From contig JAICWO010000013.1 of the NCBI GenBank assembly GCA_025934775.1, positions 1 to 64,000 of the forward strand: DNA of 64,000 bases, given 5' to 3'. Position 1 is the first letter of the stretch, and every line of letters starts with the position of its first letter. Positions 27,401 to 46,320 of the stretch are shown here, piece by piece. Below the pieces are notes generated by a model, which was not told the DNA's origin, did no database searches, and was given only the letters and a program-made list of their open reading frames with translations. Both the position numbers and the translations under genes were made by a program. This stretch comes from Gemmatimonadaceae bacterium. Its GTDB lineage: Bacteria > Gemmatimonadota > Gemmatimonadetes > Gemmatimonadales > Gemmatimonadaceae.

Positions 27401-30400
27401 GAGCGCTTCGCGCGGGTAGATGAGCGCGCCAGCGAGCTCCTGAAAGAGCGCGACGTCCGCCGGAGCGATGTCGAGATCGCGCAGCTCGACTTCGGCTTCC
27501 GTGCGCGCCAAGCTCAATGCGCGATCGCTCGCGGCGCTGTCGCGATACCGGTCGGCAAGTTGAAGCGCCGCCTCTCGAGTCGAGGCCACCGCCGTCGTGA
27601 ACGCAATTGCCGCCGAACGGCCGGGCTCCACTCGAACGCGTACGCGCAGCGCGACGATCGGATCGAGCACCGCACCGACGGTCCCGGACAACGCGCCATC
27701 GCGGTCGAGCGCGAGTGGCGCGCGCGCCGTTCTGCCGCGGCCCAAGAAGCGCGCGCGATCGGTCTCACAGGAGATGTCTCCGATCAGCTCGCGGCCGCCG
27801 GCGACCACGTGGACGCACCACGGCCACGCCTCGTCGGCGGAGCGCGGCCGGCGGCTGGCCAACAGCGCGCCGTCCTGGACGCGTTCCGTCTCCACGAAGA
27901 GTTTCTGGAACGCCGGGTGGGCGCGATCCGCATCGCCGGGACAGAGCACGACTTCGCCGTAGCTGGTCAGCTCGACATCGCGCGTTACACGCGAGCGGTT
28001 GACGAGCGTCACCCGCCGCACCTCGGCCTGTTCGCTGGCGACCACGACGACTTCGGTGCGCGTCTCCACCGCGCCGTCGCGCCGCGCGAAGACGGCGCGA
28101 TCGGCCGCGAATGATGCCCGGTACCACGACGCCGGTGCACACGTCGGCTGGTGGCCGGCGGACCACACCGTCGCCGCGGTGAGATCCTTGATGTAGATCC
28201 AATGCCCGGTGTCGTCGCGCGTGCCGTCGGCGCGCCAGCGCAGGACATCGATGTTGTTGGCCCTGCTGTATCCGCTTCCCGCATTCGTGAGCAGCACGCT
28301 GTACGCGTGACCGCCGAGCAGCGCGACCTGCGGCTCGGGCGTGTGCGGCGTGCCGACTTCGCGCACGGCGATTCGCGTCGCCGACGCCGGGACTGGTATC
28401 GCCACGGGCGCGTTGGACTGCGCGGGCCGCGGAACGTACCGGCGCGGAATGCGCTCGTCGAGCAGCAGCGCGGTGGCGCGAACCGCGGCGTCGGCCATGA
28501 ACCGCCGCTGCCAGATTCCTTCATGCTCCGCGTCAGCGACGCTCAATGCATTGTCGAACGCGACGAGGGTCATCCCGATGTGATGGGCCATGTGCGTGCG
28601 CACGACCGCCGCGCGCTCGTCCTCGTCGTGCCGCGTGTAATCCAGCGCATCATAAAATCCGTAGGGGCCGAGTGCGCCCCACCGCTCGAGCTCCGCCATG
28701 TTGCGCAACGCCTCGTGGGCATCGGCGGCGAGCGCGAGCGCCGTTGCGTACGGCGCGACGACGAGATCCGAAGCAAGGCCGCGCTTGAGCGCGAGATCGG
28801 GCACACCGAACGCGCGGTACTGATAGGTGTCGTGACGATCGCGAAGATTGTACGCGGATTCCGAGACGCCCCACGGCACGCCGCGGATTTCGCCGTACGC
28901 GATTTGCCGCCGCACCGCCGAGTGACAGGTTTGATCGAGCAGCGAGAACGGCCGCGCCGGCATGACGAGGAGCGGCATGAGATACTCGAACATCGTGCCG
29001 CTCCACGACACGAGCGCCGTGGCGCCGTCGGCGACGCTGAGCGATCGCCCGAGATGGAACCAGTGTTCGACCGGCACGTCGCCTTTCGAGATCGCCATGA
29101 AGCTGGCCAATCGCGACTCCGAGGCGAGCAGGTCGTACAACGACTCGTCACGCGTGCCGGAGCGTGCATCGTAGCCGATCGAGAACAACCGCCGCCGTTC
29201 GTCGTAGACGAGTCGGAAGTCCATCGCCGTCGCCATCACTCGCGCGCGCGCCGCGAGCGCGTCGAGGCGCGCGACGAGGGCCGCGGCCGCGGGCGACGAC
29301 ACCGCGATCGCTCGAAGCGAGACCGACGCATCGCATTCCGGATCGAGATCGAAGCTCGACAATTCGTCCGCCGTGGCTTGCAGACGCTGTCGCTCCCACA
29401 GCGCCGCCGCCGCACTGTCGGAATTGGCCGTCGCGCGCCGGCGCAGCTCGAGCATCGCGGCCTGATAGGCGAGCAACCGCTCGCCGATCCACGTGCCCCG
29501 CGCGTTCTCCCGTGATCCGCTCTCGATTTCGATCGCGGCCCACACGCGACCGTCATCGACCGGCGCGATTGCCATCTCCAAACACCCCTGCGCGAGCGCG
29601 ATGAGATGCCCCGCGAGATTGCCCGAGTCGACAGTCGAGACATACGGCGGATCGAGCACGGCGAGATCGGACAGATCGTACCAGTTGTAGAAATGGCCGT
29701 GGATGCGCGGCATTCTGTCCATGGCATCGAGCGCCCGTTCGAGCCGGCCCACCGTCTCGCCGCGCGTCAGCAATCCAAGATCGGCGGCTGACGCCGTCGC
29801 GAGCAGTTGGAGTCCGATGTTCGTCGGCGAGGTGCGCGACGCGATGAGCGGTTTCGGCGTCTCCTGGAAATTATCCGGCGCGAGCCAGTGCGTTTCCTCG
29901 GTGACGAACCGCTCGAAGTATCTCCAGTGATGGAGCGCATACCGCAACGCCGCCGCGCGCTCACCGTCGTCGAGCACGAGGGACCGACGGCGAAGGGGCG
30001 AGCCCAGGGCCAGCGCCGCCTCCGGTACCAGCATCCACGCGCAGGTCAACGCGGTCCACGCGCCGGCCGTCAGCCACCACGCGGCGTCTCGCACGATCGG
30101 ATCGGCGGCGGCGTGCCACGCCACGCCGGCCATGATGCTCGCGCCCAACAGCACCGATGGCCACATGCGCCGCCACACCGATCGTCGATCGTGTCCGGTC
30201 GTTTGTTCGGCGTGCGACGCCGTTTGCCACTCGAGCATACGGCGGCGTGTCCAACACACGCGCACCAGCGTCCGCCCGATCGCGTCGATGGCCAGCAGCG
30301 CCTGGTCGGGCAGCAGGACCACGGCCAACGCGAGCTGCTCGAGCGCGCGCGATGCATCGCGCGCGATTGCCCTGTAGTACGGCCTCCACGCCTGCTCGCG

Positions 30401-33379: not shown

Positions 33380-33560
33380 GGGCGCATCGGTGCGCGCGTC
33401 GTGAACGTACGTCAACGGGTCCCACCGGCCGCCGCTGGTCGCGATGACGGTGTATCCGTTGGACTCGCGAGTCGCGCGAAGCGCGCGCGTGAGTCGGCGT
33501 CCGGCTCGACGCCGAGGACGGTTCGGTCAGCGGTTCGGCGCATCGCGCACCCGATCAGAG
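33380..33560 (-). pseudogene. Possible degenerate response-regulator receiver fragment
   Basis: On the minus strand RTVLGVEPDADSRARFARL in one frame is followed one base out of phase by SNGYTVIATSGGRWD. Together they resemble beta1-alpha1-beta2 of a receiver domain (VLVVEDDxDxRxLLxxLLExxGYxVxxAxxG). No phospho-acceptor region follows. The resemblance is short and the call tentative. Confidence 0.3.
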
Positions 33561-33911
33561 GACAGCTGGACCGAGAGGCTCTCGAGTCGCCGGGGCCGTA
33601 ATGCCCGCGAGACCAGGGGGAGGTGGCCGCACGGGCCACACACCAGCACCTGAAATATACACCAGCACGGGGTCCTTCGCTCGGCGCCGGCGGAAACCCT
33701 GGACGATTTAGAAAACCAAAAACTCGAGCAGCAGCAGCCGCAGCTCGAGGGCACGGCGCGTAATGTGCTAGATTGCGACAGAGCTGGTGAGCAGCCGTGT
33801 GGCTGCCCGTTTGGGGCTTCGGCATCGCGACGCGCGCGCCGGCCCTCCGAGCCATTCCTGGTCAGCCCACTCCCGTGTTCGCGGAGGCACCATGGTTCGG
33901 TCGCGCCCCGA
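33561..33911. other. Intergenic region upstream of the seven-gene KaiC/EPS operon
   Basis: About 350 bp with no convincing gene. The frames that cross it are Ala/Arg-rich shadows. It should contain the promoter of the operon starting at 33912, but no clear hexamers are visible. A direct repeat of ACCAGCAC occurs at about 33643 and 33661. Confidence 0.4.
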
Positions 33912-34316
33912 ATGCTGACGGATGCGTCGGCGTGCCGGGTCATTCTCGTCGCCGAGCGCGATCGCAACGTTCGCGATCTCCAGTCGTTCGCGCTCGAGTC
34001 CGCCGGCTTCGTCGTTGCATTCGTCGACGACGGCGAAGCGGCGTTCGCCTACGCGACCGCGAACGCGGCCGCGCTGATCGTCACCGAGATCCTCATTCCC
34101 AAGCTCGACGGCCTGACGCTCTGCCGCCGGCTTCGCGCCGAGCCGGCGACGCGGGACGTCCCGGTGCTCGTGTTCAGCATTCTCGCCGCCGCGACGCGCG
34201 CCGAGGAAGCGGGCGCCAGCGCATTTCTCCGCAAGCCGTTCATCGAGTCCACGTTCATCGCCACGGTCAGTGCGCTGACCAAAGTCCAGGATCACGTTAT
34301 GGCAGTTGTCACATGA
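33912..34316 (+). CDS. Receiver-only response regulator with Glu at the phosphorylation site
   Basis: 134 residues, a single receiver domain. The beta3 strand reads ALIVTEILIPKLDG where family members have LVxTDIxMPxxDG, so the phospho-acceptor Asp is replaced by Glu. The acidic pocket (VAERDRN) is altered as well, but the conserved Lys is present in FLRKPF. A Glu here often mimics the phosphorylated state, so this protein may be permanently active or a scaffold. It is the first gene of the operon: its stop overlaps the start of the KaiC-like gene (ATGA at 34313). Confidence 0.88.
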   Translation: MLTDASACRVILVAERDRNVRDLQSFALESAGFVVAFVDDGEAAFAYATANAAALIVTEILIPKLDGLTLCRRLRAEPATRDVPVLVFSILAAATRAEEAGASAFLRKPFIESTFIATVSALTKVQDHVMAVVT

Positions 34317-35740
34317 GTAGTCTATTACAACCCGAACGCCGCCTGGTGCGTGATCTCGGCGGCGAGAGCGGCGACCGCATGCGGTCGGGCAATCGCGAGG
34401 CCGACTACATCCTCGGCGGCGGGTTCCCGACGAATTCGATCAACATCGTCATGGGCCACCCGGGCTCCGGCAAGACGATCTTCGCCGAGCAGCTGATCTT
34501 CGACAACGCGGCGGGCGACCGGCCCATTCTCTACTTCACGACGTTGTCGGAGCCGCTCTCCAAAGTCGTGCGCTATCTCCAAGGCTTTCGCTTTTTCGAC
34601 GAGACCAAGCTCGGCACGGAGGTCATCTACGAGGATGTCGGCGACCAGTTGTCCAAGGAGGGGCCGGCCATCCTGATTCCGGTGCTCAAGGAAGCGATTC
34701 GCACGCTCGCGCCAAAGATCATCGTCATCGATTCGTTCAAGGCCGTGCACGATCTCATGCCCTCGGACGGCGACCGGCGCCGGCTCGTCTACGAGCTCAC
34801 GGCGCTGCTGACGGCCTATGGAACGACGGCCTTCCTCCTCGGCGAATACACCGAGGACGACATTCTGCGGTACCCCGAGTTCGCCATCGCGGACGGCATC
34901 GTCGAGATGTCGCGCCGCCGGCTCGGCAATCGCGACGAACGATATTTCCGCGTCTACAAGCTGCGCGGCAGCAAGTATCTCGAAGGCGCGCACGCATTCC
35001 GGATCACCGATGCGGGCTTGGACATGTATCCGCGGCTCGTGAGCCCCTCGATGCCCGAAGGGTACGAGCCGCCGGACGAGCGGATTTCGACGGGCATCGC
35101 CGGCCTCGATCGCATGCTCGAGGGCGGTATCTGGCGCGGCACGACGACGCTCCTGGCCGGACCATCGGGTGCCGGAAAGACCACGATCGGCCTGCAATTC
35201 GCGCTGGAGGGCGCGCGCCAGGGCGAGCCAAGTCTGTATATGAATTTTCAGGAAAACCCCTCGCAGCTCATGCGCACCATCCGCAGCCTGGGGGTCGACT
35301 TGGAAGAAGCGCAGGCGCATGGACTCCAGCTCGTGTACGCGTCGCCGGTCGAATTGCAGATCGACAGCATCATCGTCGACATGTTTCGCCGCATTCAACA
35401 GGGCAAGATTCGCCGAGTCGTCATCGACGCGCTCGGCGATCTCGCGAGCGCGGCGACGGATCAACAGCGGTTGCACGATTATCTCTATGCGCTCGTGCAG
35501 CATTTCGCCGTGAGCACCATTACGAGCATCCTCAACTTCGAGACGACGGCCAATTCCGTGTCCATTCAGGGCGTGCAGAACGCCATGAGCTATCTGTCGG
35601 ACAATGTCCTGCTGCTCACCGTGGGTGGCGAGGAAACCACGCGCCGGACGATCCGCATTCTCAAGACGCGCGGCAGCGCGCACGACCTCCGGATTCGAGA
35701 GGTGATCATCACCGGCGCCGGCGTGGAGATCGTGGAGTGA
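34313..35740 (+). CDS. KaiC-like double RecA-fold ATPase, copy 1
   Basis: 475 residues from ATG 34313. Two tandem KaiC domains: the first with Walker A GHPGSGKT and Walker B KIIVIDSF, the second with GPSGAGKTT and RRVVIDALGDLA. The usual catalytic acidic pair is SE in the first domain (TTLSEP) and QE in the second (NFQENP). No kaiA or kaiB gene is present, so this is one of the KaiC relatives used in bacterial signalling rather than a clock. It is flanked by a receiver and a histidine kinase with start/stop overlaps on both sides. It probably forms ATP-dependent hexamers that relay signals to the kinase. Paralogue at 42219. Confidence 0.92.
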   Translation: MSSLLQPERRLVRDLGGESGDRMRSGNREADYILGGGFPTNSINIVMGHPGSGKTIFAEQLIFDNAAGDRPILYFTTLSEPLSKVVRYLQGFRFFDETKLGTEVIYEDVGDQLSKEGPAILIPVLKEAIRTLAPKIIVIDSFKAVHDLMPSDGDRRRLVYELTALLTAYGTTAFLLGEYTEDDILRYPEFAIADGIVEMSRRRLGNRDERYFRVYKLRGSKYLEGAHAFRITDAGLDMYPRLVSPSMPEGYEPPDERISTGIAGLDRMLEGGIWRGTTTLLAGPSGAGKTTIGLQFALEGARQGEPSLYMNFQENPSQLMRTIRSLGVDLEEAQAHGLQLVYASPVELQIDSIIVDMFRRIQQGKIRRVVIDALGDLASAATDQQRLHDYLYALVQHFAVSTITSILNFETTANSVSIQGVQNAMSYLSDNVLLLTVGGEETTRRTIRILKTRGSAHDLRIREVIITGAGVEIVE

Positions 35741-36939
35741 TGATCGGAGGTCAGGCCCGCGGCGTGTCGCCGCGGGTTGAGCAACTTCGAAAGCTCTCTG
35801 ACATCAATCGGGCCTTCTCGTACACCACCTCGCTCGACGAAGTCGCCCGGCTCACCGTCGAACAGGGTGTCGAGCTGCTGTCGGCTCCCGCAGCCGTGTT
35901 GATGCTCCAGGATATCAACGATCTGCTGCAGGTGCGCGCCGCCTACGGCGTCGCGCCGGATCGAGTGGCGCGCTTCCGGGCTCCCTTGTCGGACGAGGTC
36001 GTGGCACGGCTCGGCGGACTGCTCGACGTGCCCGGCGATCAACTGCTCGCGGTCCCGCTCGTCGCCCGCGGAACGGTGATCGGGCTCCTCGCCCTCGCGC
36101 TCGACCGGCCGGCCGTCGACATCGATGAATGGCTGCTCTCGGCGCTCGCGGATCAAGCCGCGTCCGCGCTGGAGAACGCGCGCCTCTTTGGCGAGGTGCG
36201 CGTGGAGTTGGCCGATCAACTTCGCGCCAGCAAAGGCGCCACCGACGCCAAGGATCGCGCGCTCTCCACGCTCGCGCATGACATCCGCAGTCCCCTCGGC
36301 GCGATCGAGGGATACTGCACCATCATGGAAGATGGGTTGTACGGCGAGATCACGGGCAAACAGCGCGAAGGGTTGGGCCGCATCCGCATGGCGGGGCGGC
36401 ATCTCCTCTCGCTGCTCGACAACGTCATGGACATGGCGCGGCTCAGCGCGGGCGCCATCACCGTCCGCAGCGAGCCGGTCCGCCTCCTCGAGGTCGCGAG
36501 CGAAGCCGTGGATTTGCTCACGCCGGCTTCGTACGCGAAGCGGCAGCGGCTCCAGCTGCTCGGCGGACCCGACGTCGTGGTGATCGGCGACGGGGCGCGG
36601 CTGCGCCAGGTGCTGGTGAATCTCGTCGGCAACGCCGTGAAGTTTACGGGCGCCGAGGGCTCGATCACGTTGAGCACAGCGGAACGCGTGAACGACCTTG
36701 GCCCATGCGGCGAAGTTCGCGTGTCGGACAATGGGCCCGGCATCTCGCGCGCCGATCAAGCGTCGATCTTCGAGCCGTATTATCGCAGCGAGACGACGGC
36801 GGCCGCGCCGGGCGTGGGACTTGGGCTGGCCATCTCCGACGCGCTCATCAGGCAGATGAACGGACGGATGGAGGTCGAAAGTCACCTTGGCGCGGGCTCG
36901 TGCTTCTCGATCCAACTGCCGATGGCGGCCGCCATATGA
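35740..36939 (+). CDS. GAF-domain sensor histidine kinase
   Basis: 399 residues from ATG 35740, overlapping the KaiC stop by one base. A GAF domain spans about residues 20-165 (LTVEQGVELLSAPAAVLMLQ ... DQAASALENARLF), then HisKA with the phospho-His in STLAHDIRSPLGAIEG, and HATPase_c with N box VLVNLVGNAVKFT, VSDNGPGIS and GVGLGLAISDAL. No membrane segment, so it is a cytosolic kinase likely reading a small-molecule or protein signal through GAF. The next gene is a canonical response regulator, its probable partner. Confidence 0.95.
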   Translation: MIGGQARGVSPRVEQLRKLSDINRAFSYTTSLDEVARLTVEQGVELLSAPAAVLMLQDINDLLQVRAAYGVAPDRVARFRAPLSDEVVARLGGLLDVPGDQLLAVPLVARGTVIGLLALALDRPAVDIDEWLLSALADQAASALENARLFGEVRVELADQLRASKGATDAKDRALSTLAHDIRSPLGAIEGYCTIMEDGLYGEITGKQREGLGRIRMAGRHLLSLLDNVMDMARLSAGAITVRSEPVRLLEVASEAVDLLTPASYAKRQRLQLLGGPDVVVIGDGARLRQVLVNLVGNAVKFTGAEGSITLSTAERVNDLGPCGEVRVSDNGPGISRADQASIFEPYYRSETTAAAPGVGLGLAISDALIRQMNGRMEVESHLGAGSCFSIQLPMAAAI

Positions 36940-36943
36940 CGTC

Positions 36944-37354
36944 GTGACCGCCGTTCGCGAAGCGCCCCAGGTCATCGTCGTCGACGATGATTCCGAGCTG
37001 GTCGCGATGATTCGGTTCGGCCTCGAGTCATCGCACTACTCGGTGGCGACGTATGACAACGCGCCAGAGGCGCTGGCGGCGATGATCGCATTGCCGACGC
37101 GCGGTCCGCCGCGTCTCGTGCTGCTCGACATCGACTTGCCGGGCATGGACGGTCACACACTTCACGAACAGCTGCACGCGGCCCGTCCGGGCCGCTTCAT
37201 CGTGGCGTTCCTCAGCACGCGGGACAGCGACGCCGATCAGGTGCGCGCATCGGCAGGAGGCGCCGTGGATTTCCTCGTCAAACCGGTGAGCATCCCGGTG
37301 CTGCTCGCCAAAGTCCAAGTGTGGCTCGAGCCCTGCATCGACGGCGCCGAGTGA
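36944..37354 (+). CDS. Receiver-only response regulator
   Basis: 136 residues from GTG 36944, four bases after the kinase stop. Complete receiver: VVDDDSE acidic pocket, RLVLLDIDLPGMDG with the phospho-acceptor Asp, FLSTRD for the Thr/Ser switch and FLVKPVS with the Lys. No output domain, so it must act by protein-protein contact, for instance on the HEAT-repeat protein or glycosyltransferase encoded next. Confidence 0.93.
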   Translation: MTAVREAPQVIVVDDDSELVAMIRFGLESSHYSVATYDNAPEALAAMIALPTRGPPRLVLLDIDLPGMDGHTLHEQLHAARPGRFIVAFLSTRDSDADQVRASAGGAVDFLVKPVSIPVLLAKVQVWLEPCIDGAE

Positions 37355-37370
37355 TCAGGCCGATCAGTCT

Positions 37371-38438
37371 GTGATCGGCGGCATCGTTATCGTCGTCGTC
37401 GGCGCCCTCCAGGCGCTGTTCATCGCGGCGTTGCTCATCGTCCTCGCGGTGGCGCACCGTCGAAGCGGGCGCGGCGAGGCGGAGGACGATGCAATCGCCG
37501 CCGCGCTTCGTCCGCCGGCGCGCGCGCTCGTCCTTGGCGACGACGAGGGCGAAGCGCTCGCGGGGGCTCTTGCCGGTCTCAGTCCGGATGTCGCGTCTCG
37601 ACAGTTGCGATCGATCGCCGCGTCGCAGATCGCGTCGGAACAGCTGCGGCATTTGGCGGCGCATGTGCGTCCGGCGGCCTGGGTGGAGCTCAAACTTGCG
37701 GATGGAACCTCGACGCGCTGGTGGAAGCGGATGGAAGCAGCTCGCCTCCTCTCCGTCGTCATGGCGCCGTCGGATCTGCCGCTGCTCGCGCGCCTCCTCT
37801 GCGACGAAAATCCGGCGGTGGTCAGCGCCGCCACCGGTGCTATCGCGGGCCACGCGGACGCCGGACTCGCCACGCTCATCATCCGCCGCCTCTCCGCGCG
37901 GGCGCCGACGGTGCGCCAGCAGCAGATGCGCGCGCTGCGCACCTGCGCGGAGGTCTCGACCACGATTCTCGTCGACGAGCTCGAGGCGGAAACGCGGCCG
38001 GATCAGATCCGGGCCCTGGTGCAGCTTGCCGAAGCGCTCGGCACACCGCGGGCACTGGCGGCGGTCGTTCCGCATGCATCGCATCCCAACGCGGACGTGC
38101 GCGCGACGGTCGCGCGTGCGTTGCGCTGGTGTTCCAGCGCGGCCGCCGTGGACGCGGCACGGCGCGCGTTGACCGACGGCGACTGGCGCGTGCGGGCGGC
38201 GGCGGCGCGCGCGCTGGCCAGTCTCAACGCCGTCGAGACGATTGGCGAGCTCGAGGAAGCATTGCGCGATGCGTCATGGTGGGTGCGCTTCCGCGCCGCG
38301 CTCGCCCTCGGCTCCTTCGGCGCGGCGGGCGAGGAGGCGCTGGCCACCGCCGCGATCTCGGACGACGACTTTGCGCGCGACATCGCCATCGTCGTGGGCG
38401 GTCTCAGCGAGTCGGCCCGCATCGAGTTGAGCGCGTGA
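37371..38438 (+). CDS. HEAT-repeat membrane-anchored protein
   Basis: 355 residues from GTG 37371. One N-terminal membrane segment (about residues 3-28, GGIVIVVVGALQALFIAALL) is followed by a cytoplasmic array of HEAT-like helical pairs, for example ALGTPRALAAVVPHASHPNA and DGDWRVRAAAARALASLNAV. Such arrays are protein-binding solenoids. The stop overlaps the GTG start of the glycosyltransferase gene by four bases. Placed between a response regulator and a glycosyltransferase, it may be the adaptor that carries the signal to the polysaccharide synthase. Confidence 0.87.
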   Translation: MIGGIVIVVVGALQALFIAALLIVLAVAHRRSGRGEAEDDAIAAALRPPARALVLGDDEGEALAGALAGLSPDVASRQLRSIAASQIASEQLRHLAAHVRPAAWVELKLADGTSTRWWKRMEAARLLSVVMAPSDLPLLARLLCDENPAVVSAATGAIAGHADAGLATLIIRRLSARAPTVRQQQMRALRTCAEVSTTILVDELEAETRPDQIRALVQLAEALGTPRALAAVVPHASHPNADVRATVARALRWCSSAAAVDAARRALTDGDWRVRAAAARALASLNAVETIGELEEALRDASWWVRFRAALALGSFGAAGEEALATAAISDDDFARDIAIVVGGLSESARIELSA

Positions 38439-39877
38439 CGGCGGGCCTCGCACTCCACGCCGCGCTTCGTGCGGCGACCGCGCTCATCGTCCTCTTCATG
38501 CTCGCGCTGAATTCGTTCTACGCGCTTCTGCTGATCCTGTCGATCCCGGAACTGCTGCGGCACTGGAGAATCGCCGACGACGTGAATCTCCGCCTGCTGC
38601 GGGCCGCGGACGTGATTCCACCGCTCTCCGTGCTCGTGCCGACGTACAATGAGGAGAGCTCGATCGTCGCCAGCGCGCTGTCATTCCTGTCGCTCGAGTA
38701 TCCGCGACACGAAGTCGTCCTGGTGAATGACGGATCGACCGACGGCACGATGCAACGGTTGATCGACGCCTACGCGCTCGTCGAGGTGCCCGCCGCGTAT
38801 CCCGCCGTCGTGCGCACCGCCGCGGTCAACGCATATTACCGCTCGACCGTGCACGCGAAGCTCGTGTGCGTGGACAAGGTGAATGGCGGCAAGGGCGACG
38901 CGTTGAATGCCGCGCTGAATGCCGCGCGCTACCCGTATGTGGTCGCGGTCGACGCCGACACCTTCATCGAACGCGATGCGCTCCTTCGGATCGCGCGGCC
39001 GTTCCTGCTCGGCGAGCGTGTCGCCGGCGTCGGCGCGACGATTCGCGTCTCGAACGGATCGACCGTGGAACACGGGCGGGTCGCTGACGCGCACGTCGAC
39101 CGCCGTTGGCTGCCGGGTATTCAAACCGTCGAGTACCTGCGGGCCTTCTTGTTCGGCCGGCTGGGGTGGAACCGGCTGGGCGGCGGCTTGATCATCTCCG
39201 GCGCATTCGGGTTGTTCAAGCGGCAGCACGTGCAGGACATCGGCGGCTACAACGCCGGCACGGTCACCGAAGACCTCGACCTGGTCGTGCGCCTGCACAA
39301 GCATCTGCGCGACTCCGGCTCGAGCGACATCCTGACGTTCGTTCCCGACCCCGTGGCGTGGACCGAGGCGCCGGTCACGGTCGCGGTACTCGGCACACAG
39401 CGCGAACGCTGGCATCGCGGGCTGATCGCGACGGTCGTCAAGCACCGCGACATGCTGTTCAATCCGCGCTACGGTGTCGTTGGCCTCGTCGCGTTTCCGT
39501 TCTACATGCTCGGCGAGGTGCTCGCGCCCGTCGTCGAGGCGCTCGGCTACCTCGTCGTGGTCACGAGCCTCCTCGTCCGCGCCAGCGGCGATTCCGCGGC
39601 GTTCGCGTTTCTCGGCGTGTCGATGGGATTCGCATTTCTCCTCTCGCTCTGGGCCGTCGTTCTCGAGGGGATCAGCTTCCGGCGGTACACAACGAGGAAC
39701 GACGTGTTCAAACTCCTGTGGTTCTCGGTGCTCGAGTCGTTCGGCTATCGCCAGCTCACCGTGCTGTTCCGTCTGCGTGCGTTTCCGCGCTACCTGCGCG
39801 GCGACCTGCGTTGGGGCTTGATGCCGCGCGAGGGTCCGCTGCCGCACAAGGCCGAGGCCGCGGGGGTGGCGTCATGA
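38435..39877 (+). CDS. Family 2 membrane glycosyltransferase (polysaccharide synthase)
   Basis: 480 residues from GTG 38435. An N-terminal membrane segment leads to a GT-A domain with VLVPTYNEESSIVASAL, LVNDGSTDGT, GKGDALNAAL, the nucleotide-sugar DxD in VAVDADTF, the acceptor-site VTEDLDLVVRL and the processive signature QRERWHRG (Q/RxxRW). Three or four C-terminal membrane helices follow (GLVAFPFYMLGEVLAPV onward). This is the layout of processive synthases such as PgaC, HasA or BcsA. It probably polymerises a sugar and extrudes the chain across the inner membrane. The stop overlaps the start of the barrel gene. Confidence 0.94.
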   Translation: MTAGLALHAALRAATALIVLFMLALNSFYALLLILSIPELLRHWRIADDVNLRLLRAADVIPPLSVLVPTYNEESSIVASALSFLSLEYPRHEVVLVNDGSTDGTMQRLIDAYALVEVPAAYPAVVRTAAVNAYYRSTVHAKLVCVDKVNGGKGDALNAALNAARYPYVVAVDADTFIERDALLRIARPFLLGERVAGVGATIRVSNGSTVEHGRVADAHVDRRWLPGIQTVEYLRAFLFGRLGWNRLGGGLIISGAFGLFKRQHVQDIGGYNAGTVTEDLDLVVRLHKHLRDSGSSDILTFVPDPVAWTEAPVTVAVLGTQRERWHRGLIATVVKHRDMLFNPRYGVVGLVAFPFYMLGEVLAPVVEALGYLVVVTSLLVRASGDSAAFAFLGVSMGFAFLLSLWAVVLEGISFRRYTTRNDVFKLLWFSVLESFGYRQLTVLFRLRAFPRYLRGDLRWGLMPREGPLPHKAEAAGVAS

Positions 39878-40689
39878 TATCGGCAATGACGATGTTCGCG
39901 GCACTCGCATCGTTCACATCGTACCCGCGCGTCGGCGGCGACACGACCGCGGTGCGCGACACGACCGCGGTGCGCGACACGACGCGCTCGCTCGACGTCC
40001 CGCCGTGGTGGGAGGCGAGCGTCGCGATGGCCGGCGAGTCGTTCGTGTCGCGGCTCGCGTCGTGGCAGTGGCACAGCGTCGCGCTACGCTATCGCGGCAA
40101 ATCGGCGTCACACGCGATCGAAGTGTTCGCGGCGCGGCGATACGATCAATGGAACGGCGGCGTGGCCGTCGAAGAGTCGAGAACCGTCGGCCGCGGCGCC
40201 TACGTCGCGCTCCGGGCGCAGTTTGCCCCGCGGGCGACGATCGTCGCGCACTCCGACCTCTCCGCGTCCTGGTACCAGGCGCTCGGCCACGGGTGGGAGA
40301 CGGTGCCGTCGGTGCGCATCATGTCGTTCGCCGAACGCATTCCGATCATCGGTCTTGGCCTCGGCCGCTACACCGGTCTCTGGTACGTGGCCGGCCGCGC
40401 GAGCGACGCGATCGAGCGCGGCGCGCCCGGCGTCACGGCAACCGGCGAGATCCGCCGCTACGCCGGCGACGCGTCGTCGACCTTCGTGGACCTGACGGCG
40501 TCGCACGGAAGCGATCTCGTCGTGCTCGGGCCGTCGAGCACCGTGCTGCGCACCACATCGTCGGTCGCGGTGCGCGGGCAACGGATGATGGCGCGCGGCC
40601 TCGGGATTTCGGTCACCGCAACCTACGACGCCAACGCTTCCCTTCCCGACCGGCGCGGGGGCGTTCTGTCGGCGTTCGTCCGATGGTGA
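39874..40689 (+). CDS. YaiO-like outer-membrane beta-barrel protein
   Basis: 271 residues from ATG 39874, overlapping the glycosyltransferase stop by four bases. A short signal-like N terminus is followed by the tandem DTTAVR repeat and then alternating beta strands (HAIEVFAARRYDQWNGGVAV, GAYVALRAQFAPRATIVAHS), closing with AFVRW, the aromatic end of an outer-membrane barrel. YaiO-type proteins are found with polysaccharide synthases. Here it may be the outer-membrane exit for the polymer made by the preceding gene. It ends the seven-gene unit. Confidence 0.82.
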   Translation: MISAMTMFAALASFTSYPRVGGDTTAVRDTTAVRDTTRSLDVPPWWEASVAMAGESFVSRLASWQWHSVALRYRGKSASHAIEVFAARRYDQWNGGVAVEESRTVGRGAYVALRAQFAPRATIVAHSDLSASWYQALGHGWETVPSVRIMSFAERIPIIGLGLGRYTGLWYVAGRASDAIERGAPGVTATGEIRRYAGDASSTFVDLTASHGSDLVVLGPSSTVLRTTSSVAVRGQRMMARGLGISVTATYDANASLPDRRGGVLSAFVRW

Positions 40690-40709
40690 CGCGGCGAGGC
40701 CGATCGCCG

Positions 40710-40739
40710 TTCGACCGGGCTCATCTATTAGAATATTAT
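40710..40739 (+). promoter_or_regulatory. Candidate promoter of the DUF3943 gene
   Basis: TTCGAC at 40710 and TATTAT at 40734 are separated by 18 bp, in an AT-rich stretch that contrasts with the GC-rich surroundings. The start codon follows about 27 bp later with GAGAAGGA as ribosome site. This suggests the gene is transcribed separately from the preceding operon. Confidence 0.5.
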
Positions 40740-40765
40740 AAACATTTTCTCGAGAAGGACGGACC

Positions 40766-42199
40766 ATGCAACGTGCCATTCGCTTCGCGGTCGTACTCGC
40801 CTGTAGCGCGGCGCACGCCGCCGCCGCGCAAGCCGGCGCGTCGGCGGACACGTCGGGCGGCAAGAGCAACGTCCTTCCCGTCGTCGAGATCGCGAGCTTC
40901 CTCACGTTGCTGAGTGCCTACGATCGCGTGGCGTACGCCAACGAGATGCAGGACGGCAAGCGCGTGTACAGCGCGACCATCGCGAGCACGTGGTACCATC
41001 TCCGCACGCAGCGCTGGGTACACGACCAGGATCCGTTCAACGTCAATCAATTCGAGCATCCGTATCAGGGCGCGATGATGTACGGTCTGGCGCGCTCGAG
41101 CGGCCACACGTTCTGGGCGTCGCTCGCCGACGCCAACATCGGCAGCTTCATATGGAAGATGGCCGGTGAAACCGATCCGCCGTCGATCAATGACATGATC
41201 ACGACGGGCCAAGCGGGAAGTCTGCTGGGCGAAGCGCTCTATCGCGTGGCGGATCTCGTGCTCAAGGACAAGCCCGCGGGCGGCAAGTCGCCGCGTTGGC
41301 ACGACTACGTCGCCGACGCGATCTCGCCCCCCCGGGCCGTCAACCGCCGCGTCTTCGGCGAGCACTTTCGTGCCGAGCTGCCGGACAGCACCCCCGCGAC
41401 CTCGTGGCAGGTGCGGTTGGGGGCGTCGCTCGACGCCGTCGCCCACAACACGGCGGTGCCGGGGACGCTGCTCAACCGAGGCGCGACGGCGGAGCTCTGG
41501 TTGTCGTACGGTCTGCCGGGAAAGCCGGGCTATGCGTACACGCGTCCGCTCGACTACTTCGACCTCCAGATGTCGCTGCTGGCCAACACGAGCAACCCGA
41601 TCGAAAACGTGATGATTCGCGGCCTGCTCAAGGGCGCGGCGACGAGAGAGACGCCGACGTCGCGCGGCGTGTGGGGATTGTATGGAACGTACGACTACAT
41701 CTCGCCGTTCCTGTTTCGCGTGTCGAGCACCGCGGCATCGCTCGGCACGACGCGGCAGTACTGGCTCACGCCCGCGCTCGCCCTGCAGGGCACGGCGCTC
41801 GGCGGCGTGGGGTATGGCGCCGCGGGCTCGACGACGATCATTCCCAGCACGCCGGCCAACGCCGCCATCCGCGACTACCATTTCGGCGTGACGCCGCAAG
41901 CGCTGGTGACACTGCGGTTGATCGCCGGCGATCGGCTGATGCTGGACATGGCGGCACGCGAGTACTACGTGAGCGGCTTGGGCTCCGACGACGTGCACGG
42001 ATCCGAGACGATCTTCCGCGGCAACATCGGCTTCAACGTGCGGATCGTCGGCGGGCACGCGCTGGGCGTGCGGTTCGTCGAATCAACGCGCAACGCGCGG
42101 TACGGGAAGTTGCCGAACGTCGCGTCGTCCGAAGGAGCCGTGACGATCGCGTATTCCTTCCTCGGCGCCGACCGGTTCAGCGCCGTGAAGTGGCCGTGA
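40766..42199 (+). CDS. DUF3943 outer-membrane protein
   Basis: 477 residues with a signal peptide (cleavage near AAAAQ). The N-terminal part carries the family signature DPFNVNQFEHPYQGAMMYGL and several hydrophobic helices. From about residue 215 alternating beta strands suggest a barrel (WQVRLGASLDAVAHNT ... AVTIAYSFLGADRFSAVKW). DUF3943 proteins are predicted outer-membrane proteins of unknown function. It has its own promoter-like sequence, so its relation to the upstream polysaccharide operon is uncertain. Confidence 0.85.
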   Translation: MQRAIRFAVVLACSAAHAAAAQAGASADTSGGKSNVLPVVEIASFLTLLSAYDRVAYANEMQDGKRVYSATIASTWYHLRTQRWVHDQDPFNVNQFEHPYQGAMMYGLARSSGHTFWASLADANIGSFIWKMAGETDPPSINDMITTGQAGSLLGEALYRVADLVLKDKPAGGKSPRWHDYVADAISPPRAVNRRVFGEHFRAELPDSTPATSWQVRLGASLDAVAHNTAVPGTLLNRGATAELWLSYGLPGKPGYAYTRPLDYFDLQMSLLANTSNPIENVMIRGLLKGAATRETPTSRGVWGLYGTYDYISPFLFRVSSTAASLGTTRQYWLTPALALQGTALGGVGYGAAGSTTIIPSTPANAAIRDYHFGVTPQALVTLRLIAGDRLMLDMAAREYYVSGLGSDDVHGSETIFRGNIGFNVRIVGGHALGVRFVESTRNARYGKLPNVASSEGAVTIAYSFLGADRFSAVKWP

Positions 42200-42218: not shown

Positions 42219-43718
42219 TTACACGCTCGGCACACGCGCCGGCGCGGCGAGCGTCGGCACGCCGGTGGTAATGCCGTGATAATCCGCCAACGACGCGCCG
42301 ATGACCGCGCCGGTCGCCGTGAGCCGGTACGTGCGGAAGTCGGTCGCGTGCTCGCTGCCGCGCATCTTGACCACCGACAGGACCTTTTGCAGCGCGCCGT
42401 CGATCTCGACGTAGCGCTGCACGAGAATGTCGTCCGTGATGAACGACACGCGCTCGTGCGTGAAGCGGCCGCCCGGCGTCGCGTCCACCACCTCGTCCGT
42501 CATCAGGACGGTCACACCCGACACCGTGAGCGCCCCGACCAGCCGGTATAACGATTCTCTAAAGTCGGCGCGGTAGCTCGGCGCGAGCGCCACCTCGAAG
42601 CCCGAGAGCGAATCGATGACGACGCGGCTGGCGCCGATGCGCTGAACGGCGCGCTCGATCTCGGCCAGCATCTCGTCCACCGACAAGTCGAGCGGACGCA
42701 GATACGTCACGATCAAACGCCCGACGTCGATCATGTGATCCAGGCCGGTGGAGACGACCTTGGCGCGCGTCAAATACGCGTCCGGATATTCCTCGAACAC
42801 CGCGACGACGCACGCTTCGCCGTCCACCAGCCCCTGCGCGACGAAATGCGTCGCGAACGTCGTCTTGCCGCTGCCCGCGGGGCCGGTGAGCAGCACCACG
42901 TCGCCAGCCGGGATGCCGCCGCCGGTCATGGCGTCCAGTCCGGGAACACCGGTGCCGAGACGGGCGACCGGCTGCTGACGGCGCGGGCGCACCTGTTCGG
43001 GAATGCGCGGGAATACCTGCACGCCCGAGGCGTTGAGTCGAAACGTGTGCAATCCCGGCATCGGATTTCGGCCGCGTACTTTCACCACGCGCAGCTTGCG
43101 CGTCGCCGAGTTGCGGTCGACGTCTTCGGACAGCCACAGAATGGTGTCGGCAATCGTGAACACCGGCTGCCGCTGCTCGGTGTCCGAATACTCGCCGATC
43201 AGGAACGACGTGACTTCCCACGTCGTGAGCTGCTGGGCCAGACGGTTGACGAAATGCGCCATGTCCAGCGACTCGGGCGATTCCGCCGCTCGGCCTCCGC
43301 CGACGATCGTGCGAAAGGAGTCGACCGCGACGAACGCCGGCTGGGTGGCCGCGACCTCGGCGATGACGCGCTGCAGCACCACCTCGAGGTCCCCGCTCGA
43401 CGCTTCGGCAGCGAGATTGACGAATCGCACCGCCGCCGGCACCAGGGCGGCATTAAAGAACTCGAATTGCCGCTGGTAGCGCAGCATCTTCACCGTCGGC
43501 TCGCCGAGTACCGTGAAATACAGCGCCGGCCGTTCGCGCGTCGCGTTGGCGAACAAGATCTGTTGCACCAGCGTCGTCTTGCCCGACCCCGGGGCCCCCG
43601 CCACGAGGTTGAACGCATACTCGCAGAGCCCCCCGCCAAGCACGGCGTCGAGCCCGGGCACACCGGTGGCGATGTTCCGCATCACCGAGTCGTCGGATAC
43701 GAATGGAGAAGCGGTCAT
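42219..43718 (-). CDS. KaiC-like double RecA-fold ATPase, copy 2
   Basis: 499 residues. Two KaiC domains: Walker A GAPGSGKTT and FVAVDSFRTI in the first, GPAGSGKTTF and RVVIDSLSGFE in the second. The second domain keeps the canonical acidic pair (VFEEYP). It is a diverged paralogue of 34313-35740. Its start overlaps the stop of the small gene upstream by four bases, and a response regulator and GAF kinase precede on the same strand, repeating the make-up of the first locus. No kaiB. Probably an ATP-driven signalling hub for a two-component pathway. Confidence 0.92.
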   Translation of the reverse strand: MTASPFVSDDSVMRNIATGVPGLDAVLGGGLCEYAFNLVAGAPGSGKTTLVQQILFANATRERPALYFTVLGEPTVKMLRYQRQFEFFNAALVPAAVRFVNLAAEASSGDLEVVLQRVIAEVAATQPAFVAVDSFRTIVGGGRAAESPESLDMAHFVNRLAQQLTTWEVTSFLIGEYSDTEQRQPVFTIADTILWLSEDVDRNSATRKLRVVKVRGRNPMPGLHTFRLNASGVQVFPRIPEQVRPRRQQPVARLGTGVPGLDAMTGGGIPAGDVVLLTGPAGSGKTTFATHFVAQGLVDGEACVVAVFEEYPDAYLTRAKVVSTGLDHMIDVGRLIVTYLRPLDLSVDEMLAEIERAVQRIGASRVVIDSLSGFEVALAPSYRADFRESLYRLVGALTVSGVTVLMTDEVVDATPGGRFTHERVSFITDDILVQRYVEIDGALQKVLSVVKMRGSEHATDFRTYRLTATGAVIGASLADYHGITTGVPTLAAPARVPSV

Positions 43719-44116
43719 GAATCGTCGGCGTGAAGGAGGTTGCGTACCATGTCCGCTCCGATGAGGGCGGTGAGAATGTCGACGAGCGCCGCCAGCACGG
43801 TCTCCACGGCGGCACGCGCCGCGTCCGCTCCGTGCATCTCGATCGCCGTAACGATGTTCAACGGCATGCCGGCGTCGGCGGCGCGCCCGATGCTCGCGAC
43901 AACCGGGTGTCCGCGCTGCGCCTGCGCCATCGCGCGATCGAGCAAGGCATCGAGCCCGTCCGCGCCCACAGCGCCCTCGAGATCGCCGAGGATTCGTCCC
44001 ACGGCGCGCTGTATCGCCGCGGAGAGCGCCTCCGCATCCAACTCCCCGTTCACCTCGCGGTCCATGAGTTCCCGAGCCAGCGAACGGGCGTTTGCGGCTC
44101 CCTCGTTGTCCGGCAT
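43715..44116 (-). CDS. Small helical protein coupled to KaiC-like copy 2
   Basis: 133 residues, wholly helical, no recognised domain. The N-terminal half is acidic (LARELMDREVNGELDAEALS), the C-terminal half hydrophobic and Ala-rich (ARAAVETVLAALVDILTALI). Four-base overlap with the KaiC-like gene makes a physical partnership likely, perhaps as a small regulator comparable in position, though not in visible sequence, to KaiB. Not recognised beyond that. Confidence 0.75.
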   Translation of the reverse strand: MPDNEGAANARSLARELMDREVNGELDAEALSAAIQRAVGRILGDLEGAVGADGLDALLDRAMAQAQRGHPVVASIGRAADAGMPLNIVTAIEMHGADAARAAVETVLAALVDILTALIGADMVRNLLHADDS

Positions 44117-44236
44117 GCGATCAACTGTCCGGGAAGCTGGATCAGCACCGCCCGCGACACGGGTGAGAGGCGGAATGCCTGAGTCTAGCGTACCTGCCCG
44201 GCGCGCGCTACCACGCGCACGGCAGACGCCTCCTTC

Positions 44237-44638
44237 TTACGGAGCGCCTGCGACGGTCGCGTCAAGCACCTGCTGCACGCTCTCGAGCACGCGTGCCAAG
44301 CTGACCGGCTTCGCGAGATACAGCGCCATGCCGGCCTCGCGCGCCCGCTCCGCATCCTGCGGCAGTGCCATGGCCGTCAGGGCGATGATCGGAATATCCC
44401 TCGTCACCGCGTCCTCGCGCAGCGCTCGTGCGGCCATCCATCCATCCATTCCGGGAAGCGCGACGTCCATCAGGATTACATCCGGATGCATCGACCGCGC
44501 GAGCGCGACGCCGCACGTGCCGTCGTGCGCGAGCACGACGTGGTAGCCGGCGTGCTTCAGCCAGACGGACATGATCAACGCGTTGTCTTCGTTGTCCTCG
44601 ATGATGAGCACGGTCGCCGCCACTGGAGTCGTGCTCAC
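44237..44638 (-). CDS. Receiver-only response regulator
   Basis: 133 residues, a complete CheY-like receiver: LIIEDNEDN, DVILMDVALPGMDG with the phospho-acceptor, IIALTAMAL and YLAKPVS. No output domain. It overlaps the stop of the kinase gene upstream by four bases (44635-44638), so kinase and regulator are made together. About 120 bp separate it from the small KaiC partner gene. Confidence 0.95.
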   Translation of the reverse strand: MSTTPVAATVLIIEDNEDNALIMSVWLKHAGYHVVLAHDGTCGVALARSMHPDVILMDVALPGMDGWMAARALREDAVTRDIPIIALTAMALPQDAERAREAGMALYLAKPVSLARVLESVQQVLDATVAGAP

Positions 44639-46005
44639 GAGTCCGTGGCGCGCCGCGACTGCCCCGCGGCGGGAAGCGTCAGACGAAACGTGGAGCCGAC
44701 GCGCAGCGCGCTCGTCACCGATAGCTCCCCGTCCATGCCGCGGGCGAGTTGCCGGGCGATCGCCAGGCCCAGGCCGACGCCGCCGCCGCGGTCCGCCGTC
44801 GCTCCCGGCAACTGCACGAATGGCTCGAAGATGGACTCGAGCTTATCGCTCTCGATACCCTCGCCTTCATCGCACACTTCGACGTACGGGCCGGCCCAGC
44901 TCGTTCCGCAGCGGACGAGGAGCCGCGCCCGGTCGGGCGAATACTTCATCGCGTTCGTGATCAGGTTGATGAGAATTTGCCGAATCCGGTCGGCATCGCC
45001 GAACCCCACCGCCACTCCAGCGAAGCACGATTCGTACGCGACCAGTTGCCCTTTCGCCTCGATGAGCGGGGCGATCATCTCGGCTGCCTCGACCGCGGCC
45101 GGTCCGAGATCGACGTACGTGAGCGTGAACTCGGCTCGTCCGGTATCGACCCGAACGAACGCGAGTATCTGGCTGATCAACGAGAGTAAGTGCTGCTGGT
45201 TCCAGCGAATGCGCTCCAGGTCGCGACGCTGGTCGTCCGTGACCGGCCCGCGGAGGCCCATCGCCATCAGCTCCGCGTACCCACCGATCGCGCTGAGCGG
45301 CGTGCGCAGCTCGTGTGTCACATGCCCCAGGGCATTGACCCTCGCGCGCTCGGAATCCTCGGCCGATTTGCGGCGCCGGTCCATCGCCGCGAACTGGCGC
45401 GACGTGTGGACCGCGCGCGCGCAGGCGGCCGCCACGCTTTCGGCAAACTCGATCTCGTCCGGCGTGTACGCCGTCCGGGCGCTGCGCGCGACGAACGTGA
45501 TCGCGCCCCGGATACGGCCGCCCACCCGAATGGGCACCACCAGACATGCGGCGAAGCCCAGCGCCCGTAGAATCGCCACGTTCTCCGGAGTGTGACCGGC
45601 CGCGGCGAGCACCTCGTCCATATGCTCGACCAGGGCGATCGTGTGTTCAACGCGCCTGGCGGCCGGATAACCGAACGGGTCGTCGTCGCGGGGAGTCCAC
45701 CGTCCGTTCAACTCATCCGCGATCGCCTGGTCCGCGGGATCGGCTCTCGGGATCGCGAGGCGAAGCAGATGATCGTCGCTCTCGAGGAGATCGACGATGG
45801 CCCACGAGTCGGCGCCGGGGAGGCAGACGCCCGACAGGGTCGTGCGCATCGCCGTCTCGTCGAGCGATGCCGCTAATCGCTCCTGGAGGCCGGCGAGGTA
45901 GTCGAGCCGCTCCGACCGCCGCTCGGCCGCGTCGGCGCGATCTGTTTCGGCGAGCGCGGCCACGATCAGCCGTCCGGCGACGGTGTGCTCGTCGAACTTC
46001 GTCAT
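44635..46005 (-). CDS. GAF-domain sensor histidine kinase
   Basis: 456 residues from ATG 46005; the frame is open further upstream without similarity. An N-terminal coiled segment (ADAAERRSERLDYLAGLQER) leads to a GAF domain (about residues 45-205, ACLVVPIRVGGRIRGAITFV), then HisKA with LGHVTHELRTPLSAIGG, and HATPase_c with ILINLITNAMKYS, CDEGEGIES and GGVGLGLAIARQL. No membrane segment. With the following receiver it forms a cytosolic two-component pair beside the second KaiC-like gene. Confidence 0.95.
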   Translation of the reverse strand: MTKFDEHTVAGRLIVAALAETDRADAAERRSERLDYLAGLQERLAASLDETAMRTTLSGVCLPGADSWAIVDLLESDDHLLRLAIPRADPADQAIADELNGRWTPRDDDPFGYPAARRVEHTIALVEHMDEVLAAAGHTPENVAILRALGFAACLVVPIRVGGRIRGAITFVARSARTAYTPDEIEFAESVAAACARAVHTSRQFAAMDRRRKSAEDSERARVNALGHVTHELRTPLSAIGGYAELMAMGLRGPVTDDQRRDLERIRWNQQHLLSLISQILAFVRVDTGRAEFTLTYVDLGPAAVEAAEMIAPLIEAKGQLVAYESCFAGVAVGFGDADRIRQILINLITNAMKYSPDRARLLVRCGTSWAGPYVEVCDEGEGIESDKLESIFEPFVQLPGATADRGGGVGLGLAIARQLARGMDGELSVTSALRVGSTFRLTLPAAGQSRRATDS

Positions 46006-46320
46006 GCGGTTCGGCTGGCGCGTCGATGTGTCCGGCTCGTCGCTCCCATCGCTCGGATCATGATGCTCGACTCCACTGGACTTGTATCTACGTCTTCGTG
46101 ATGACGAGCACAATGGCGGCCATGGCGGCCGCTCGCGTGATGCAGTCGGAAGACGCGACGGAGCTCGCACACACCACGCCGCGTGCGACCAATCACGATG
46201 CGCGCAGCTCCTGGGAGGCGACGTCGAGCTGAAGAGCAGCAGCGATGAATGAAGCACGATTCTCGTACGTCCGCTCTACGACCGCCGTCTGCCCCGTTCG
46301 CGCGGGTCGCCGAACGCGAC
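46006..46320. other. Intergenic region, about 315 bp
   Basis: Upstream of the GAF kinase gene; it should carry that gene's promoter. Reading frames through it are shadows. No repeat, hairpin or RNA gene is evident. Confidence 0.4.

What the first reader, a model, noticed from the sequence alone, without database searches (positions are those of the whole stretch)
33912..40689. Seven-gene KaiC-kinase-polysaccharide operon led by a phosphomimetic receiver
Receiver, KaiC-like ATPase, GAF kinase, receiver, HEAT-repeat protein, processive GT2 and YaiO-like barrel follow each other with overlaps or gaps of at most 16 bp. The first receiver carries Glu in place of the phospho-Asp, which should lock it in an active-like state. 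The order suggests a complete path from an ATP-dependent switch through a kinase and regulator to a synthase and exit pore. This is my best candidate for an undescribed system: a KaiC-type control of exopolysaccharide secretion without KaiA or KaiB.
Basis: partly seen in the sequence, partly recalled or inferred. Interest (0 to 1): 0.75.

Follow-up and report, generated by a model that had tools for sequence, protein, structure and literature searches.

The report
Clock-like signalling cassette beside polysaccharide module
The seven genes are real and tightly packed, but they are two separately conserved units that meet only in this genome: a KaiC-type signalling cassette, and a receiver/HEAT-protein/sugar-polymer synthase module that recurs across many bacterial phyla and in archaea and seems not to have been described.

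Summary
The seven ORFs are exactly as described. The interpretation as one conserved KaiC-to-exopolysaccharide system fails its own test. A same-genus genome (G004) carries pseudo-receiver, KaiC-like ATPase and kinase (87, 96, 91% identical) followed directly by DUF3943. The receiver-HEAT-GT2-YaiO block (window 36941-40818) is absent there.

In 23 further loci of this KaiC clade, none has GT2, HEAT or YaiO nearby; 19 of them show genes beyond the kinase. Conversely, of 80 relatives of the synthase from at least 15 bacterial phyla and archaea, 76 have a HEAT gene next to it, 67 a receiver, 22 YaiO, and none a KaiC. So this is a junction of two cassettes.

The Glu at the phospho-site is invariant in 14 of 14 orthologues, with Arg in the metal pocket: a conserved pseudo-receiver. 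Receiver-HEAT-GT2 is a cross-domain synthase module with no description found in open papers.

Most likely wiring (inferred): the cassette's kinase phosphorylates RR2, which acts through the membrane-anchored HEAT solenoid on the synthase. Two KaiB-KaiC loci lie elsewhere in the genome.

The parts
33912..34316 (+). RR1, single-domain pseudo-receiver (cassette A): Glu at phospho-site, Arg at second acidic position
   Evidence: Pfam Response_reg 3.8e-17; Glu in 14/14 orthologues, one clade at 100/98
34313..35740 (+). KaiC1, two-domain KaiC-family ATPase (cassette A); both Walker A motifs intact; first Glu of each catalytic pair replaced (TLSEP, FQENP); no C-terminal KaiA-binding tail
   Evidence: Pfam KaiC 4.7e-68; PDB KaiC matches; motif alignment
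35740..36939 (+). HK1, soluble GAF-HisKA-HATPase histidine kinase (cassette A)
   Evidence: Pfam; 91% identical in G004 without the polysaccharide block
36944..37354 (+). RR2, canonical single-domain receiver with phospho-Asp (module B)
   Evidence: Pfam 1.7e-20; in the tree it lies among receivers of HEAT-GT2 modules, sister to L129 at 100/93
37371..38438 (+). HEAT-repeat protein: N-terminal hydrophobic helix followed by an alpha-solenoid (module B)
   Evidence: Pfam HEAT_2 8.8e-20; AlphaFold pLDDT 93.5, helix 2-54 then solenoid; HEAT-type fold matches
38435..39877 (+). GT2, membrane processive glycosyltransferase, PgaC/IcaA-like but below that family's cut-off (module B)
   Evidence: Pfam Glyco_tranf_2_3 1.7e-21; TIGR03937 115.8 bits against cut-off 422; conserved catalytic motifs
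39874..40689 (+). YaiO-family outer-membrane beta-barrel (module B, optional member)
   Evidence: TIGR04390 75.7 bits, over cut-off 32; near GT2 in 22/80 loci
40766..42199 (+). DUF3943 protein; in G004 it directly follows HK1, so it marks the far side of the junction
   Evidence: Pfam DUF3943 4e-29; synteny
36941..40818 (.). Segment absent from the syntenic locus of G004 (108 bp there)
   Evidence: blastn of window against L095; junction alignment
42219..46257 (-). Convergent second KaiC block: HK2, RR3, 133-aa protein, KaiC2; neighbour, not part of either unit
   Evidence: KaiC2 and its 133-aa partner occur in all six genomes of the genus

Best explanation
The seven-gene run is a junction of two independently conserved cassettes. 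Cassette A is pseudo-receiver, KaiC-family ATPase and histidine kinase. Module B is receiver, membrane-anchored HEAT solenoid and processive GT2 synthase, with an optional YaiO barrel. Shown here: the anatomy, the conservation of A without B and of B without A, the family membership of RR2 in B, and the absence of B from the syntenic locus of G004. Inferred: in this strain both are read as one transcript. The KaiC ring with its non-phosphorylatable partner RR1 sets the activity of HK1 according to ATP state or a GAF ligand. HK1 phosphorylates RR2, since RR1 cannot accept a phosphoryl group. RR2~P acts through the HEAT solenoid on GT2, whose polymer leaves through YaiO. Module B elsewhere can sit behind unrelated kinases, so A would be an interchangeable input.
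For: G004 has RR1-KaiC1-HK1-DUF3943 without B. 23 further loci of the KaiC1 clade: receiver immediately upstream in 18, kinase downstream in 19 of 21 visible, and no GT2, HEAT or YaiO nearby. GT2 relatives: HEAT next to it in 76/80, receiver in 67/80, no KaiC (the three weak hits read as RadA and ImuA-like RecA proteins, judged by eye). HEAT and GT2 overlap by 4 or 1 bp in 51/74. RR2 lies inside the module receivers, and the phospho-Asp is kept in 59/64 of them. Other kinases lie upstream of module B in 16/80, and in Haloarcula the order is kinase - receiver - HEAT - GT2 - kinase. More distant GT2 paralogues of the same genomes (L028-L036) show no HEAT match in the 1.5-kb flanks held.
Against: Gain of B in this strain and loss of B in G004 cannot be told apart: G004's copy also shows decay (NdvB and KaiC2 remnants). 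Composition does not mark B as foreign. No interaction or phosphotransfer is shown, and HK1 could serve another receiver.
Confidence: 0.62

Rival explanations
1. One dedicated KaiC-controlled exopolysaccharide system: all seven genes evolved together as a path from ATP switch to exit pore.
For: Overlaps and gaps of at most 16 bp across all seven genes. Plausible functional order. HK1 directly precedes the canonical RR2.
Against: Order found in no other genome examined; each half is conserved without the other.
Confidence: 0.1
2. Pure neighbourhood: module B landed behind HK1 in a gene-dense signalling hotspot and is controlled by some other kinase. KaiC1 and HK1 do not influence polymer synthesis except by sharing a transcript.
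For: The junction is absent elsewhere. The region turns over quickly, with a duplicated and decayed copy in G004. In most module B loci no kinase lies next to the module (upstream kinase in only 16/80), so receivers are often served from afar.
Against: The HK1-RR2 spacing (4 bp) and the order kinase-receiver-HEAT-GT2 match loci where a kinase does lie upstream (L201, L203, L208). RR1 cannot accept phosphate, so HK1 needs another receiver, and RR2 is adjacent.
Confidence: 0.28
3. Ancestral union, then loss: the seven-gene order is old in this genus and B was deleted from G004 and other genomes.
For: G004's locus shows deletions elsewhere (NdvB interior, start of KaiC2). B's composition matches the genome.
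Against: B is absent from all five other genomes of the genus. 23 other cassette-A loci, most of them in other genera, lack it. Many independent losses would be needed.
Confidence: 0.12

Closest known systems
KaiABC / KaiBC timing systems (Synechococcus; Rhodopseudomonas palustris KaiBC, PMC4794148)
   Same: Double-domain KaiC-family ATPase with intact Walker A motifs, linked to a histidine kinase. KaiA and CikA also carry pseudo-receivers (PMC12632262).
   Different: No KaiA C-domain and no KaiB at this locus. KaiC1 lacks the first catalytic Glu of each pair, has Tyr at the T432 position and ends before the KaiA-binding tail. The kinase sensor domain is GAF, not KaiB-like.
KaiC-like ATPases as signalling hubs in archaea (Makarova et al. 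2017, cited in PMC5847659; itself not readable here)
   Same: KaiC-family ATPases combined with receivers and kinases outside the clock.
   Different: Bacterial, separate genes, with a Glu pseudo-receiver as the conserved partner.
PgaABCD / IcaA poly-N-acetylglucosamine synthase; E. coli YaiP-YaiO
   Same: Processive GT2 with QxxRW; YaiO-family outer-membrane barrel (E. coli pairing from own knowledge).
   Different: GT2 far below the PgaC cut-off. No PgaD, PgaB or PgaA in the run. Receiver plus HEAT solenoid take the place of c-di-GMP-type control; the module also occurs in Gram-positives and archaea.

Membership tests
KaiABC-type circadian clock | KaiA (KaiC-binding C-terminal domain) encoded with KaiC | tested here: not met
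   RR1 is a lone receiver of 134 aa with no KaiA domain in Pfam. The rest of the genome was not searched for KaiA.
KaiABC-type circadian clock | KaiB adjacent to KaiC | tested here: not met
   KaiB only at C3 and C35, next to other KaiC genes
KaiABC-type circadian clock | Catalytic Glu pair and S431/T432 phosphosites in KaiC CII | tested here: not met
   FQENP (first Glu to Gln); Ser kept, Thr to Tyr; pattern shared by most orthologues
KaiC ATPase family (Pfam PF06745) | Two KaiC domains with Walker A motifs | tested here: met
   229.5 bits, cut-off 26.6, two stretches; GHPGSGKT and GPSGAGKT
Pseudo-receiver | Receiver fold with loss of residues needed for phosphotransfer | tested here: met
   Phospho-Asp to Glu in 14/14; second acidic residue to Arg in 12 of 13 covered; Lys kept
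Pseudo-receiver acting as phosphomimetic | Active-like state that depends on the Glu | not testable with these tools
   Needs a structure and an E-to-A or E-to-D swap with a binding assay
Receiver-HEAT-GT2 module (recurrent unit described here) | Receiver, membrane HEAT protein and GT2 adjacent, HEAT and GT2 translationally coupled | tested here: met
   Window genes match; HEAT in 76/80, receiver in 67/80, 4 or 1 bp overlap in 51/74
PgaABCD poly-GlcNAc system | PgaC at family score, with PgaD, PgaB and PgaA | tested here: not met
   TIGR03937 115.8 bits against cut-off 422.3; no other Pga family among the scanned neighbours
YaiO outer-membrane proteins (TIGR04390) | Score over curated cut-off | tested here: met
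   75.7 bits, cut-off 32

The most novel reading that the evidence does not exclude
Receiver-HEAT-GT2 is an undescribed, domain-crossing class of polysaccharide synthase switched after translation by a phosphorylated receiver through a membrane-anchored HEAT solenoid. In this strain its input has been replaced by a KaiC-family ATPase with a conserved Glu pseudo-receiver and its kinase, so that polymer output follows an ATP-driven KaiC switch.
Probability: 0.3. Interest if true: 0.72.

Novelty: new variant of a known kind. Interest (0 to 1): 0.46.

Why it matters
It corrects a tempting story: dense gene order in one genome suggested a KaiC-driven secretion system, but comparison splits it in two. 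It also brings out two questions. Why does a KaiC clade keep a receiver that can never be phosphorylated on Asp, with the same Glu in every orthologue found? And how does a receiver plus HEAT solenoid, linked to a processive synthase in many bacterial phyla and in archaea, control polymer synthesis? The second can be tested in culturable hosts such as Haloarcula, Halobacillus or Solirubrobacter.

Tried and rejected
Horizontal transfer shown by composition: GC, GC3 and codon usage of the block are ordinary for the window, so origin is not settled this way. KaiC near GT2 in other phyla: three weak hits (L130, L132, L185), but they read as ImuA-like RecA (L130, L132) and RadA (L185), judged by eye from the sequences. 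Receiver RR2 as part of the KaiC cassette: rejected by the tree. Promoter and terminator scan: no more matches than shuffles, uninformative except a possible -10-like site before DUF3943. Structure of the 133-aa KaiC2 partner: helical, mean pLDDT 77, no PDB match. Literature on the receiver-HEAT-GT2 module: nothing found in the searches made; subscription papers are not held, and Makarova et al. 2017 could not be read.

Full report
1. Observation. The window lies in a genome of 4.88 Mb (G000:C41). Its relatives in named collections are Gemmatimonadota. Gene calls and start codons reproduce the seven ORFs with overlaps of 1-4 bp and gaps of 4 and 16 bp. Pfam and NCBIfam give Response_reg, KaiC (two domains), GAF-HisKA-HATPase_c, Response_reg, HEAT, a GT2 nearest to PgaC/IcaA but far below that cut-off, and YaiO over its cut-off. 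The genome holds two further KaiC loci that do have KaiB.

2. The order is not conserved as a whole. A search with the window's GT2 in 59 relatives gave about 20 loci of 40-61% identity, none in the other five genomes of the genus; G004 has only a 37% paralogue. With neighbourhoods of up to 20 kb, receiver-HEAT-GT2 is recurrent (YaiO in some) and KaiC is never there. A search with KaiC1 in 288 genomes of the order and 395 of the phylum gave a distinct clade (52-96% identity). Of 23 loci of that clade outside the window, 18 have a receiver immediately upstream and 19 of 21 visible cases a kinase downstream. None has GT2, HEAT or YaiO within the held flanks (up to 7.5 kb), and 19 show at least one gene beyond the kinase.

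3. The junction. In G004 (same genus) the window is syntenic from 33428 to 36940 (89% nt) and again from 40819 (91% nt). The 3.9 kb between them is replaced by 108 bp, and DUF3943 begins a few bases after the kinase stop. Protein identities are RR1 87, KaiC1 96, HK1 91, DUF3943 91%. Homology ends a few bases after the HK1 stop codon. Whether the block was gained here or lost in G004 is open, since G004's copy also carries decayed NdvB and KaiC2 pieces and composition is uninformative.

4. Module B is far wider than the phylum. A single scan of one genome per species with the GT2 alignment, which contains no HEAT or receiver information, returned 80 kept loci of at least 580. They come from Gemmatimonadota, Actinomycetota, Bacteroidota, Ignavibacteriota, Fidelibacterota, Acidobacteriota, Bacillota, Deinococcota, Chloroflexi, Myxococcota, Bdellovibrionota, Pseudomonadota, Elusimicrobia and other phyla, and from archaea. 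HEAT is next to it in 76, a receiver in 67, a kinase nearby in 22, YaiO in 22 and a KaiC in none. HEAT stop and GT2 start overlap by 4 or 1 bp in 51 of 74. An annotated Haloarcula plasmid reads kinase, response regulator, HEAT repeat protein, glycosyltransferase, GAF kinase. A Bacteroides plasmid has HEAT-GT2. More distant GT2 paralogues in the same relatives (L028-L036) show no HEAT match in the 1.5-kb flanks held, a negative control. In relatives the receiver is often part of larger proteins with Hpt or GGDEF domains.

5. RR2 belongs to B, RR1 to A. A tree of 64 module receivers, 14 RR1 orthologues (the window's own included), RR2 and RR3 puts RR2 inside the module receivers, sister to L129 (100/93), whose GT2 is the closest found (67%). 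All RR1 orthologues form one clade (100/98). Phospho-Asp is kept in 59 of 64 module receivers; Glu is present in 14 of 14 RR1 orthologues, with Arg at the second acidic position in 12 of 13. The tree has few columns and many forks are unresolved, but these two groupings are supported. The Glu is therefore an old, fixed feature of the KaiC cassette. Glu is the commonest replacement in bacterial pseudo-receivers, and the phosphomimetic hypothesis has been disproved in some (PMC12632262). The Arg in the metal pocket makes a salt-bridged, non-metal-binding state at least as likely (inference).

6. KaiC1. Both Walker A motifs are intact. CI reads TLSEP and CII FQENP where KaiC has a Glu pair; Ser431 is kept and Thr432 is Tyr; the protein stops before the KaiA-binding tail. 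From established KaiC biochemistry (own knowledge), the first CII Glu is the base for autophosphorylation. So KaiC1 is more likely an ATPase switch than an autokinase (inference).

7. HEAT protein. AlphaFold gives a confident model (pLDDT 93.5): helix 2-54, whose start is hydrophobic, and then a continuous alpha-solenoid. Foldseek finds alphaRep, PP2A-A and other HEAT/armadillo proteins. A membrane-anchored adaptor between receiver and synthase is the natural reading; contacts are not shown.

8. Mechanism, with status. Shown: anatomy, independent conservation, membership of RR2 in B. Inferred: KaiC1 and RR1 tune HK1; HK1 phosphorylates RR2; RR2~P acts through HEAT on GT2; polymer leaves by YaiO. 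Since RR1 cannot be phosphorylated at the usual site and HK1 sits directly before RR2, in the position where other kinases sit in L201, L203 and L208, capture of B by A is the best single account. Mere neighbourhood remains a real rival.

9. Verdict. Observation confirmed; interpretation as one conserved KaiC-EPS system not supported. The more promising discoveries are the cross-domain receiver-HEAT-GT2 module and the conserved Glu pseudo-receiver that travels with a KaiC clade. No open-access description of either was found, which does not exclude one in papers not held.

Noticed in passing
43715-44116 (-): 133-aa helical protein without a Pfam or NCBIfam match over cut-off, 4-bp overlap with KaiC2; homologues precede KaiC in all six genomes of the genus, in L112, and at about 20% identity on Caballeronia and Paracoccus plasmids. 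Candidate undescribed KaiC partner.
   Followed up: partly
42219-46257 (-): Second KaiC block (HK2, RR3, 133-aa protein, KaiC2) converging on the first; KaiC2 and its 133-aa partner are found in all six genomes of the genus, HK2 and RR3 complete in G001 and G004.
   Followed up: partly
24464-33046 (-): 2860-aa protein that I take to be a cyclic beta-glucan synthase of the NdvB type (not scanned against family libraries), divergent from RR1. G004 has one long copy (aa 1-2647 within the fetched stretch) and one reduced to a C-terminal remnant in a decayed duplicate of the region.
   Followed up: partly
L061 (G000:C3) and L062 (G000:C35): Two further KaiC genes of this genome each have KaiB and a kinase next to them, so four double-domain KaiC genes coexist in one genome.
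   Followed up: partly
40690-40766: Short AT-rich stretch before DUF3943 with a weak sigma-70-like match; DUF3943 has a different signal-peptide region in G004.
   Followed up: no
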